A stretch of DNA of 6,611 nucleotides from JBFLXN01 sp040755715 [NCBI: Candidatus Edwardsbacteria bacterium] (GTDB lineage: Bacteria > Edwardsbacteria > AC1 > JBFLXN01): the NCBI GenBank assembly GCA_040755715.1, contig JBFLXN010000153.1, positions 1 to 6,611 on the forward strand, in the 5' to 3' direction. Of this stretch, positions 1,354 through 6,611 are shown piece by piece. Numbering within the stretch: the first letter of the stretch is position 1; every line of letters begins with the position of its first letter. Made by a program: the position numbers and the translations under genes. The notes below the pieces were generated by a model. That model did no database searches, had not been told where the DNA came from, and worked only from the letters and a program-made list of their open reading frames with translations.

Positions 1354-1412
1354 ACCGCGGAGGTCCAGAGAGCGCAGAGATTGCAGGTTTGCGTCCTCCG
1401 TTTCTCTGCGGT
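1354..1412. repeat. Imperfect palindrome of the CCGCAGAG intergenic type
   Basis: The left arm 1354-1375 (ACCGCGGAGG...GAGAGCGC) and the right arm 1391-1412 (GCGTCCTCCG...CTGCGGT) match at 15 of 22 positions as an inverted repeat around a 15-base loop. The GCGCAGAG / ACCGCAGAG wording is that of a short palindromic repeat I remember from intergenic regions of many unrelated genomes. It sits in the gap between the first two genes of the cluster and could act as an mRNA hairpin inside the operon. There is no T-run, so it is not an obvious terminator. Confidence 0.6.
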
Positions 1413-1434
1413 TAATATTCCACAAGAAGGAAAT

Positions 1435-2986: not shown

Positions 2987-3598
2987 ATGTTGACTATTAT
3001 TGGAATCTGGCTTGCGGCGGGATTGACAATCGCTATCTTTTCTTTTCTCTACAAAGACAATCCTCTTTACAAATTTGCTGAGCACCTCTATGTTGGAGTC
3101 TCGGCCGCCTTTTCTATAATTTATGTTTGGGCTTTTGATGTGTGGCCAATGTTGGTTGACCGTTTTCGGACTGAGAGGGGAGTAGAAAAATGGATTCTAA
3201 TTGTTCCAGCTTTATTTGGTCTAATTATGCTCTCTCGCTGGATTCCAAAAATCAGTTGGCTTTCTCGATGGGCAATTGCCTTGACTGTTGGCATTGCCGC
3301 GGGTCTTGGTATTATTGGACAGATTCAGGGTATCCTTATCCCCCAAATTCAGGGAACAATGCTTCCACTTACTACCATTAATAATGTGATTTTGGTGGTG
3401 GGTGTCCTGGCGAGTCTGTTCTATTTCTATTTTTCCTTAGAGCATAAAGGCGTGCTGAAGGGAGGGGCCAGAGTAGGCATCATCTTCATAATGATTGCCT
3501 TTGGAGCTTCATTTGGCTATACAGTAATGGCTCGGATTTCCTTGCTAATTGGTCGTCTTTCCTTCCTTTTGCGAGATTGGCTACATCTGATTAGATAA
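2987..3598 (+). CDS. Six-helix membrane protein, last gene of the DUF6754 cluster, function unknown
   Basis: Protein of 203 residues with about six membrane helices, near 2-21, 36-55, 69-84, 95-112, 133-150 and 161-180. A conserved-looking loop FLYKDNPLYKFAEHLYVG (20-37) follows the first helix. I remember comparable KDNP.YKFAEHL proteins next to DUF6754 genes, which supports membership of the same system, but I cannot name the family. The start is secure: AAGGAGG lies seven bases upstream and the preceding stop codon ends one base before the ATG. The C-terminus (RDWLHLIR) is short and basic. A 344-base non-coding gap follows, so this is probably the last gene of the first transcription unit. 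It may be a membrane anchor or channel-like part of the complex; no residues visible here decide that. Confidence 0.85.
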   Translation: MLTIIGIWLAAGLTIAIFSFLYKDNPLYKFAEHLYVGVSAAFSIIYVWAFDVWPMLVDRFRTERGVEKWILIVPALFGLIMLSRWIPKISWLSRWAIALTVGIAAGLGIIGQIQGILIPQIQGTMLPLTTINNVILVVGVLASLFYFYFSLEHKGVLKGGARVGIIFIMIAFGASFGYTVMARISLLIGRLSFLLRDWLHLIR

Positions 3599-3626
3599 GG
3601 ACCAACTATAAACGATTACGGAGACC

Positions 3627-3647
3627 CGCCCCGCCAAAGGCGGAGCG
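3627..3647. repeat. GC-rich hairpin downstream of the membrane cluster
   Basis: CGCCCCGCC (3627-3635), an AAA loop and GGCGGAGCG (3639-3647) pair over nine positions with one C/A mismatch. It lies 28 bases after the last stop of the cluster, in a place where a terminator would be expected, but no T-run follows. It may act as a transcript-stabilising or weak termination hairpin, or be a dispersed palindromic element. Confidence 0.5.
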
Positions 3648-3721
3648 AGTGAAGAGATATGATTATAAGTAAAGGGAATAGGGTAAAGTAGATCGGTTAC
3701 GAAACTCATATCGTTAATCTT

Positions 3722-3815
3722 GAGAAAGTTTGCACAGTTTTTTGGGTTTACATAGTTTCTTGGGTTATAAAACTCAAGAAACTCAATGAACTCAATAAAC
3801 CCAATAAACTTATTA
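3722..3815. repeat. Symmetric dyad built of 9-bp tandem units, five per arm
   Basis: The right arm is five 9-base units starting AAC: AACTCAAGA (3771), AACTCAATG (3780), AACTCAATA (3789), AACCCAATA (3798), AACTTATTA (3807). The left arm has five 9-base units ending GTT at 3722, 3731, 3740, 3749 and 3758 (the last TCTTGGGTT), which are the same motif on the other strand. The loop ATAA (3767-3770) is the exact centre. The inner stem 3756-3766 / 3771-3781 pairs over 11 positions with one G-T wobble. The outer stem 3736-3750 / 3796-3810 pairs over 15 with one T-T mismatch. It does not look like protein-coding DNA. Confidence 0.85.
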
Positions 3816-3942
3816 ACTGAAACGAGCGTCGCAACCGTGACCGTAACCGATTTCTCCGACATAGAAGACTTCAAAAGGCAGATTACTATCGCCGGCATCG
3901 TCAAAATTATCGCTGTAATCATAATTTAGGTAGGGAGAAAAA

Positions 3943-4257
3943 ATGGAATTCTTAATGAGTATTGAAGGAGTAAAAGGTTATGTCCTCTTTCAAGAGGAAG
4001 GTCCGACTGTCTTGAGTAAAGGTGGAAATGTAAGCAGTAACTTTAGCGATTTGACCTTATTCTGGGTTCCAGCAGCCGCTGTGGTTCGTGATACCTTGGA
4101 TTTGGGTAGAATAGAAACGATAGGACTTAGTGGCACTAAAAAAAGGGTGGTTTTGATATATCATAAAGATAACTTGGTTGGCTGTGAAATTGGAGAAAAT
4201 GTTAATTTAAGTCAAATATTACCGCGCCTCCAAGAAGTATTGAAAAGGTCGTCCTAA
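3943..4257 (+). CDS. Roadblock/LC7-like small protein
   Basis: Protein of 104 residues, about the size of a stand-alone roadblock/LC7 domain (a dimerising alpha/beta regulator fold, often a partner of small GTPases). It starts with a short helix-like segment and a GYVLFQEEG strand-turn-strand (12-20), has a hydrophobic helix around 38-53, then strands IETIGLSG (57-64) and KRVVLIYHKDNLVGCEI (67-83), and ends with an amphipathic helix (SQILPRLQEVLKR, 90-102). The strand pattern fits the fold, but the match is by pattern only and no catalytic residues are expected. The ATG at 3943 has AGGGAG five bases upstream. The next gene, also roadblock-like, begins 13 bases after its stop, so the two probably form a co-expressed pair and may heterodimerise. 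No small GTPase gene is visible in the window. Confidence 0.75.
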   Translation: MEFLMSIEGVKGYVLFQEEGPTVLSKGGNVSSNFSDLTLFWVPAAAVVRDTLDLGRIETIGLSGTKKRVVLIYHKDNLVGCEIGENVNLSQILPRLQEVLKRSS

Positions 4258-5843: not shown

Positions 5844-5848
5844 TGAAA

Positions 5849-5945
5849 AAATGCAAAAATCAAAATGCAAAATGACAAATCAAAATTCAAAGAGCAGATA
5901 ATTTTTACATTTTTGTCTGTCATTTTGATATTTGAATTGACATTT
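5849..5945. repeat. AT-rich inverted repeat of the CAAAATGACA type
   Basis: CAAAATGACA (5868-5877) is matched exactly in inverse by TGTCATTTTG (5918-5927). The arms extend outward as AAATGCAAAAATCAAAATG on the left against a TTTGAATTGACATTT-like right arm with several mismatches and one gap, and inward as CAAAATTCAAA against TTTTACATTTTTG. I remember this wording from intergenic repeats in many environmental genomes. It has no coding character. Confidence 0.7.
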
Positions 5946-6036: not shown

Positions 6037-6433
6037 ATGCCCAAATATCTAATTCTCATTTGCTTCATTGGTGCTTTTTCTATATTGTCATCGTCCTGTT
6101 CGAAAGGGAAATCAACCGGAAAAATGGGAAATAACGAAAATACCTACAGACAGTATTAGCGTTGGTCAGAAAACAGACAGCACAATAGCTTTTACTGCAC
6201 GTTCATGGGGGCTTAACGGTTGTTATGTTTATTCCCATAATGAAATTAACAGAGTGGGAAGGAACATAAACATAACAATATATGGTAAGTATCCCACTTC
6301 TGAATATTGCACCATGGCTTTAATTGCAATTTACACTCAAATGCAGGTTCACATACCGAAAGCTGACACATATTATTTTCATTTTTGGAACTACGAGATA
6401 TCAAGTTACGATACGACTATAATCGCCCCTTGA
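6037..6433 (+). pseudogene. Predicted lipoprotein with a small beta-rich domain, frameshifted after the signal peptide
   Basis: From the ATG at 6037 the first frame encodes a lipoprotein signal: MPKYLILICFIGAFSILSSS followed by Cys21 (6097-6099) and SKGK, then stops after about 40 codons. The next frame, open from 6068 to the TGA at 6431-6433, reads KGNQPEKWEITKIPTDSISV and continues with a beta-rich domain (WGLNGCYVYSHNEINR, INITIYGKYP, SEYCTMALIAIYT, DTYYFHFWNYE). Removing one base from the AAAGGGAAA run at 6103-6111 joins both into a 131-residue protein. The two cysteines of the body (NGCY and SEYC) could form a disulfide. GAGAAG (6023-6028) stands eight bases before the ATG. It would be exported and lipid-anchored; function unknown. 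It is either a pseudogene or carries a base-call error; the body alone, starting TTG at 6068, would be unexported. Confidence 0.75.
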
Positions 6434-6483: not shown

Positions 6484-6500
6484 ATTCGTGTTTATTCGTG
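6484..6500. repeat. ATTCGTG direct repeat pair
   Basis: TTAATTCGTG and TTTATTCGTG stand side by side with a period of ten bases (ATTCGTG at 6484-6490 and 6494-6500). The same wording occurs, as I remember, in dispersed intergenic repeats of many genomes. It lies 50 bases after the lipoprotein stop, in the final 178 bases, where I see no gene on either strand. TGTCAA (6510-6515) and TTGACA (6532-6537) form a weak inverted pair just after it. Confidence 0.4.
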
Positions 6501-6611
6501 GACACACTATGTCAAGCTCTTTTTAACTTGTTTGACAAATTAATCGAAATTGACTGTCTGGCAAAATTAGCGAGCAAGAAATTTTCGTCGTAAGTGAGAT
6601 TGTTTTTCCAC

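What the first reader, a model, noticed from the sequence alone, without database searches (positions are those of the whole stretch)
3722..3815. 94-bp perfect-symmetry dyad made of 9-bp tandem units
Five 9-base units of the AACTCAATA type on the right arm face five units on the opposite strand on the left arm, exactly centred on a 4-base ATAA loop. Tandem repetition and dyad symmetry at once is unusual: it could fold as a long hairpin with slippable registers, bind an oligomeric protein, or be a dispersed repeat spread by an external transposase. A 9-base period is also codon-compatible (IEF, INS-like peptides), so automated annotation may call false proteins here.
Basis: seen in the sequence. 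Interest (0 to 1): 0.6.

Follow-up and report, generated by a model that had tools for sequence, protein, structure and literature searches.

The report
Exchangeable intergenic hairpin of nine-base repeats
Between two genes of a bacterial ATPase operon lies a non-coding, hairpin-shaped stretch built of nine-base repeats; look-alikes sit between genes of uncultivated phages, where close relatives carry a different repeat of this kind, or none, at the same spot.

Summary
At 3722-3815 two arms of 9-base units face each other around ATAA, but the symmetry is imperfect (31 of 47 positions). It exceeds chance: period-9 score 29 against at most 22 in 100 shuffles, RNA-fold z -6.0. It is neither unique nor coding. 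The unit is a 7-base core (AACYCAA) plus a 2-base variable spacer. Two patterns for the oriented dyad hit 24 and 17 stretches of viral contigs (overlapping lists), the arm-swapped control 0. In the fetched loci 0 of 32 dyads lie inside long ORFs, against 104 of 154 one-armed arrays. The window's gap is 344 bp; in seven related genomes the gap after the same gene is 32-38 bp. Most striking, related phages hold different short-unit dyads, different unit numbers, or nothing in the same intergenic slot. I read it as one family in a class of interchangeable intergenic tandem dyads. How they spread is unknown; REP/RAYT, terminator and coding readings are disfavoured. The closest published kind is the convergent GGGAATC heptamer repeat of Xanthomonas (PMC4692102).

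The parts
3722..3815 (.). dyad of 9-base tandem units (the finding)
3726..3766 (.). left arm (units read on the minus strand), partly decayed
   Evidence: inverted repeat I1; unit list
3771..3811 (.). right arm, cleaner 9-base array (TRF 3770-3810, period 9, 4.6 copies)
3692..3701 (.). left half of an outer 10-base inverted repeat ATCGGTTACG
   Evidence: paired in the fold; not shown to belong to the element
3842..3851 (.). right half of the outer inverted repeat CGTAACCGAT
   Evidence: paired in the fold; not shown to belong to the element
3599..3942 (.). enlarged gap of 344 bp between two operon genes
   Evidence: gap after the orthologous gene is 32-38 bp in seven related genomes
2987..3598 (+). 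gene before the gap (203 aa; 68-75% identical in L001-L008)
3943..4257 (+). gene after the gap (104 aa)
   Evidence: tblastn recognised its relative in L005 (29% identity)

Best explanation
The dyad is a non-coding intergenic element of a dispersed family: arrays of a 9-base unit (7-base core AACYCAA, 2-base variable spacer) on both sides of a centre, with the AAC side pointing towards the centre. It is one family of a larger class of short-unit tandem dyads (others by core: ACAGGAT, AACTCGG, AACGCNA, AAAATGC, ACACGAAT and more) that occupy, and replace one another in, the same gaps between genes, in phages and in bacterial chromosomes. Shown: anatomy, fixed polarity, non-coding place, enlarged gap in the window, different contents at orthologous phage slots, changing unit number. 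Inferred: elements arrive by copying from elsewhere into gaps where they do little harm, then grow and shrink by slippage; they are transcribed along with the operon as long imperfect hairpins whose role, if any, depends on shape rather than on sequence. The enzyme or route of copying is unknown.
For: Oriented dyad: 24 and 17 stretches (overlapping lists) against 0 for the arm-swapped control in viral contigs. Polarity: 32 of 32 AACYCAA dyads have the mirrored arm upstream, 0 downstream; 37 of 37 ACAGGAT dyads the reverse. Non-coding: 0 of 32 dyads in long ORFs against 104 of 154 one-armed arrays; 24 of 36 listed elements lie outside greedy ORFs that cover 92% of the sequence. Gap 344 bp against 32-38 bp in seven related genomes. 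Same slots, different families or none, among L036/L050/L060, five phages with 94-100% identical head protein, L034/L041, L046/L055, L045/L047, L047/L057, and the L051 group. Sister families in the window's relatives: ACAGGATNNACAGGAT in 7 of 10 genomes, 47 places, control 0. The window's own second dyad (5845-5945) matches phage slot repeats, 74% over 86 bases, E 9e-11 among fetched loci.
Against: The window's own genome is not held, so copies there were not counted. AACYCAA arrays are absent from the 10 genomes of the relatives' phylum (0 of 10; one place, control one place). No clear target duplication or end motif (no shuffled control). Slot exchange was seen in phages; in the window only an enlarged gap was seen. 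One L045/L047 slot keeps an AACYCAA dyad in both. Exchange by recombination between phages, or rewriting in place, cannot be told from transposition. Any function is inference.
Confidence: 0.6

Rival explanations
1. Origin in place: short palindromes in gaps grow by polymerase slippage and hairpin-templated copying, giving tandem dyads without any mobility.
For: Units vary in number at one slot, up to 16 AACTCG-type units on one side and 4 on the other in L318; a whole element shares its core (AACTCAA, AACTCGG or AACGCNA) in both arms; near-empty slot of L060 keeps AGTT..AACT ends.
Against: The same core recurs with the same polarity in unrelated contigs; unrelated families such as ACAGGAT replace AACTCAA at one slot; spacers do not match across arms as copying of one arm from the other would give.
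Confidence: 0.25
2. REP-like miniature element moved by a RAYT (Y1) transposase.
For: Dispersed intergenic palindromes; Y1_Tnp genes in 8 of 10 genomes of the relatives' phylum.
Against: No conserved tag beside the arms (at most 0.22 bits at positions 2-14 outside the last AAC, 0.64 at position 1). In 20 of the 26 Y1 places fetched with flanks, lone heptamers of the families occur in 8 but no tandem pair in any; other palindromes stand beside many of these genes, judged by eye. This tests sister families only: no genome with AACYCAA dyads could be searched.
Confidence: 0.05
3. Array of binding sites for a protein, for instance a phage or host regulator.
For: The core is kept while the spacer varies; spacers are mostly alternating purine/pyrimidine, 96 of 114 against 59.6 expected, best of 10,000 shuffles 80.
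Against: Close phages at the same slot have another core or nothing, so no particular site is required there. Ascertainment: the core was the search query.
Confidence: 0.07
4. Coding low-complexity sequence or an intrinsic terminator.
For: Open minus-strand frame 3581-3922; long stable hairpin.
Against: 0 of 32 dyads in long ORFs. No terminator-like site at the dyad (one elsewhere in the gap on the minus strand). By my reading of the table, a run of four T follows the hairpin within 8 bases at 8 of 66 ends (2 right, 6 left).
Confidence: 0.03

Closest known systems
GGGAATC heptamer repeats of Xanthomonas and GGGGAYT of Nostoc (PMC4692102; passages, sections 10 and 16 read)
   Same: Short tandem units, some positions variable, often about four units; intergenic, mostly between co-directional genes; many as two convergent arrays near each other (70 cases in Xcc, 75 in Xac); length and sequence differ between related species at the same gaps; function unknown.
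   Different: 7-base G-rich unit with quadruplex potential, reported in cellular genomes of single genera. Here a 9-base (7+2) A/C-rich unit, found in phages, with unrelated unit families exchanging at one slot.
REP elements, BIMEs and REPINs with RAYT (PMC3733652 abstract and section 14; PMC8266576 passages; PMC3116915 listing only)
   Same: Dispersed, intergenic, palindromic; inverted pairs; several families in one genome.
   Different: REPs are 20-50 base palindromes with a GTAG or CGTC tag; no tag and no repeats beside Y1 genes were found here.
Short tandemly repeated heptamers of cyanobacteria (Calothrix; mentioned in a passage of PMC4692102, details recalled)
   Same: 7-base tandem units dispersed in a genome.
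   Different: As recalled, direct arrays without the mirrored arm; not tested.
Small variable segments between strains of a species (PMC2884548; outline only)
   Same: Short sequences that differ at the same place between close genomes.
   Different: A general class in cellular genomes, not defined by tandem dyads.

Membership tests
Heptamer G-rich tandem repeats (GGGAATC type) | 7-base unit GGGANTN with G-tracts able to form quadruplexes | tested here: not met
   unit is 9 bases, AACYCAA plus two; spacing 9 in 113 of 154 successive same-strand cores
Heptamer G-rich tandem repeats (GGGAATC type) | intergenic, pairs of arrays in opposite orientation | tested here: met
   that the polarity is the same as in Xanthomonas was not tested
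REP/RAYT | conserved unpaired tetranucleotide (GTAG or CGTC) beside the palindrome | tested here: not met
   66 ends of 33 elements: no position 2-14 outside the last AAC above 0.22 bits
REP/RAYT | cognate Y1 transposase gene flanked by the repeat | tested here: inconclusive
   20 Y1 loci from 7 genomes: no tandem pair of any family; those genomes lack AACYCAA dyads, so this bears on sister families only
MITE / transposon end | target-site duplication | tested here: inconclusive
   longest direct repeat between the two flanks is 5 bases in 3 of 33 elements, 0-4 in the rest; no random control. One L082 slot has AAGGAGG on both sides of the repeat
Intrinsic terminator | G+C-rich stem followed by a T run | tested here: not met
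   no such site at the dyad in the window
Known RNA family (Rfam 15) | covariance-model match | tested here: not met
   no match up to E 1 in the window

The most novel reading that the evidence does not exclude
A large, so far unnamed class of intergenic modules, dyads of 7-to-10-base tandem units in many sequence families, moves between phages and bacteria of uncultivated lineages and replaces itself at fixed gene-to-gene slots, by a copying machinery that is neither RAYT nor a classical transposase.
Probability: 0.3. Interest if true: 0.8.

Novelty: new variant of a known kind. Interest (0 to 1): 0.6.

Why it matters
Gaps between phage or operon genes are usually read as regulatory or empty. 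Here closely related phages carry unrelated hairpin repeats, or none, in the same gap. That makes it directly testable whether such repeats are passengers, what copies them, and whether shape alone matters. The open frames inside them also create false proteins in annotation.

Tried and rejected
Own-genome copy count: not possible, no genome is held. DNA search of the genome of L001 with the 181-base element: no match, and the tool warned that an empty answer shows nothing without a positive. BLAST of elements against plasmids, phage records and E. coli genomes: only short or weak matches, none covering 80% of the query; the Acinetobacter plasmid matches are, in the one record looked at, a different head-to-tail 9-base repeat. 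Rfam: nothing. ACAGGAT dyad with the arms in the wrong order: 0; redone as one-sided arrays, 91 stretches.

Idea that spacers are kept mismatched so that paired blocks stay below the length cut by hairpin nucleases (8-16 bp for SbcCD as cited in PMC3733652, section 14): not supported as selection. A first set leaned that way (7 of 83 identical, expected 10.3, P 0.17); a larger set gave chance level (11 of 113, expected 12.9). Idea that arms are kept paired unit by unit: core positions 4, 6 and 7 match across arms more than in shuffles (66 against 54.8, P 0.0175; 76 against 69.4, P 0.024; 105 against 99.5, 0 of 2000 shuffles as high), but relatedness of elements is not controlled, so I draw nothing from it. 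RAYT link: Y1 and ACAGGAT counts both vary among the 10 genomes, but the gene flanks do not carry the repeats in tandem.

Rows dropped: of the 8 stretches, five (L032, L033, L037, L038, L039) were left out as one-armed or coding-like. L044, L051, L052 and L054 were left out of the element list as coding-like or weak, and one L047 place (6327-6401) was left out. Lists differ in size: 36 elements, 52 found automatically (48 with paired units). L040 is 99.95% identical to part of L042, so one or two elements are counted twice.

Full report
The thing itself. At 3722-3815 two arms of 9-base units face each other around ATAA. The symmetry is not perfect: 31 of 47 mirrored positions are complementary, 71% over the 41-base arms. 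The right arm is the cleaner one. Both the periodicity (29 against at most 22 in 100 shuffles) and the dyad (29 against at most 26) exceed chance, and the RNA fold of 3680-3860 has z -6.0.

Where it sits. The window holds a DUF6754 protein and an ATP-synthase F-subunit-like protein among nine scanned; the other seven had no Pfam match. The DUF6754 protein's one relative found in GTDB contigs is 63% identical (L001, UBP2 UBA4780). In the 10 held genomes of that genome's phylum the 273-aa protein has a match in all, 66-70% identical in seven. In those seven the gap after the gene that precedes the dyad is 32-38 bp (L001 and L006 are the same place); in the window it is 344 bp. The gene after the gap was recognised by tblastn only in L005 (29% identity); in the others I take it to be the same gene from its position and its start, which resembles that in L005. 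In the three other genomes the relatives are 45-46% identical at best and other genes follow. So about 300 bp are extra here. The dyad does not abut the genes: about 125 bp lie on each side.

Relatives of the element. A pattern with one left unit and two right units plus AAC hit 24 stretches of viral contigs, its sister pattern 17 (lists overlap); the same pattern with the arms swapped hit 0. The elements share one plan: TTGRGTT-type units, a centre that is often GTTAAC or a short loop, then AACYCAA-NN units. In 221 units with a perfect core the commonest spacers are TA 53, GC 36, GT 32, TG 22, CA 19, CG 19, AG 15, AT 9. In the dyads alternating purine/pyrimidine spacers are 96 of 114 against 59.6 expected, best of 10,000 shuffles 80. 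I cannot explain that rule. Successive same-strand cores are 9 apart in 113 of 154 cases. Length between the outer ends is 59-166 bp in 33 elements.

Not coding. In the fetched loci there are 186 places with three or more AACYCAA units in tandem; 32 have a mirrored arm, always upstream. None of these 32 lies in a long ORF; of the other 154, 104 do, and GG is the spacer in 362 of their 603 units, as in GTQ-type protein repeats. The two kinds are different things that share a core.

Genes around the viral copies. Of nine proteins from five of these contigs, seven have PHROG matches, among them major head protein, scaffold, head maturation protease, portal and tail families. Of 36 listed elements 24 lie outside greedy ORFs that cover 92% of the sequence; 21 of these 24 lie between co-directional ORFs. 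Background gene orientation was not controlled.

Slot exchange. L036, L050 and L060 share segments of 85-95% identity. Their gaps: at L036 365-430, AACTCAA units / AACTCGG-type (L060) / AACGCTA-AACGCGA (L050). At 1000-1112, AACTCAA / an 8-base ATTGAGTG repeat (L060) / ACAGGAT type (L050). At 1473-1667, ACAGGAT / GTCCAAA type (L060) / ACAGGAT (L050). At 1989-2096, AACTCAA / nearly empty (L060) / AACTCAA with AACTCTA units (L050). Beside the head-protein gene, five phages with 94-100% identical protein carry AACTCAA (L315, same contig as L036), AACTCAA (L322, as L050), AACTCGG (L316, as L060), an array with 16 AACTCG-type units on one strand and 4 on the other (L318), and nothing (L317). Of 31 loci found I printed 16; the 11 with 76% identity or less show no AACTC tandem there, judged by eye, though some have plain hairpins. 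Other pairs: L034 dyad against a GGGACACTTCCC hairpin in L041; L046 dyad against a GTAGGGGCGTTT hairpin in L055; L045 ATTCGTG repeats against an AACYCAA dyad in L047; L057 dyad against none in L047; L047 dyad against none in L057; one L045/L047 slot keeps an AACYCAA dyad in both. In the L051 group (21 contigs given to the call; not every contig yielded every slot) the gaps hold AAAATGC, AACTC, CAGAATT, TTGAACAT or GTCATTGCGAG types, or are empty (names given by eye).

The class. Sister families occur in the window's relatives: ACAGGATNNACAGGAT in 7 of 10 genomes, 47 places, reversed control 0; CGCAGAGNNCGCAGAG in 4 of 10, 12 places, control 1; CACGAAT with a 3-base spacer in 1 of 10, 3 places, control 0. 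AACYCAA itself is not there (0 of 10; relaxed pattern one place, control one). The G001 CGCAGAG places partly belong to a longer repeat, so that family is not simply a tandem dyad. ACAGGAT dyads have the opposite polarity and a longer loop (37 of 184 arrays with a mirrored arm, all downstream). The window carries a second dyad at 5845-5945 whose relatives fill phage slots.

How it may work. Shown: plan, polarity, non-coding place, enlarged gap, exchange at phage slots, unit-number change. Inferred: arrival by copying, later change by slippage, read-through as an imperfect hairpin. Against selection for unit-by-unit pairing: mirrored spacers match only at chance (11 of 113, expected 12.9). Against a required site: close relatives do without it. 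RAYT mobility is disfavoured by the lack of an end tag and, for sister families, by Y1 gene flanks without tandem repeats. No terminator signature lies at the dyad.

Literature. Sequence searches and keyword searches turned up no paper on these units; some searches listed only papers on other subjects. The library holds open-licence papers only. The closest description is PMC4692102 (passages, sections 10 and 16). PMC3733652 (abstract and section 14), PMC8266576 (passages) and PMC2884548 (outline) served for comparison.

Noticed in passing
window 5845-5945: Second dyad of short A/T-rich units (AAAATGC type); 74% identical over 86 bases to a repeat in phage contig L143 and related to slot repeats in L124, L144 and L051.
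   Followed up: partly
window 1358-1416: Inverted repeat with CGCAGAG/CTCTGCGG-like ends; the tandem CGCAGAGNNCGCAGAG occurs at 12 places in 4 of 10 genomes of the relatives' phylum. No match of 1335-1425 in the fetched loci.
   Followed up: partly
window 6484-6507: TTCGTGTTTATTCGTGG, like the ATTCGTG repeats seen in L045 and L322 slots; 3 places of the tandem in 1 of 10 genomes.
   Followed up: partly
window 3786-3929: Plus-strand frame that leaves the right arm and runs open as ..TSVATVTVTDFSDIEDFKRQITIAGIVKIIAVIII; weak PHROG match, E 0.0062, to residues 7-28. Gene remnant or chance.
   Followed up: partly
L165 about 1030-1160: A TTTGGTC-NN nine-base array (spacers TG, CA) directly followed by an AACCCAA array: perhaps a further family with the same 7+2 plan.
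   Followed up: no
L034 8123-8249: Dyad of AACYARAGA nine-base units around GGTTAACC in the same contig as two AACYCAA dyads.
   Followed up: no
L035 5419-5550, L046 6825-6976, L062 1527-1642: CCTGCNGCAGG palindrome in the centre of the dyad in three contigs, as if one palindrome were nested in another.
   Followed up: no
L295-L314: Y1 transposase genes of the relatives' phylum are often accompanied by other, mostly G+C-rich palindromes, as expected of RAYT genes (by eye).
   Followed up: no
dyad spacers in viral loci: Two-base spacers are mostly purine/pyrimidine alternating (96 of 114, expected 59.6), without an explanation.
   Followed up: partly
L064 1441-1556: Acinetobacter plasmid with a pure head-to-tail nine-base array (TTAAACTTA) and no mirrored arm seen.
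   Followed up: no
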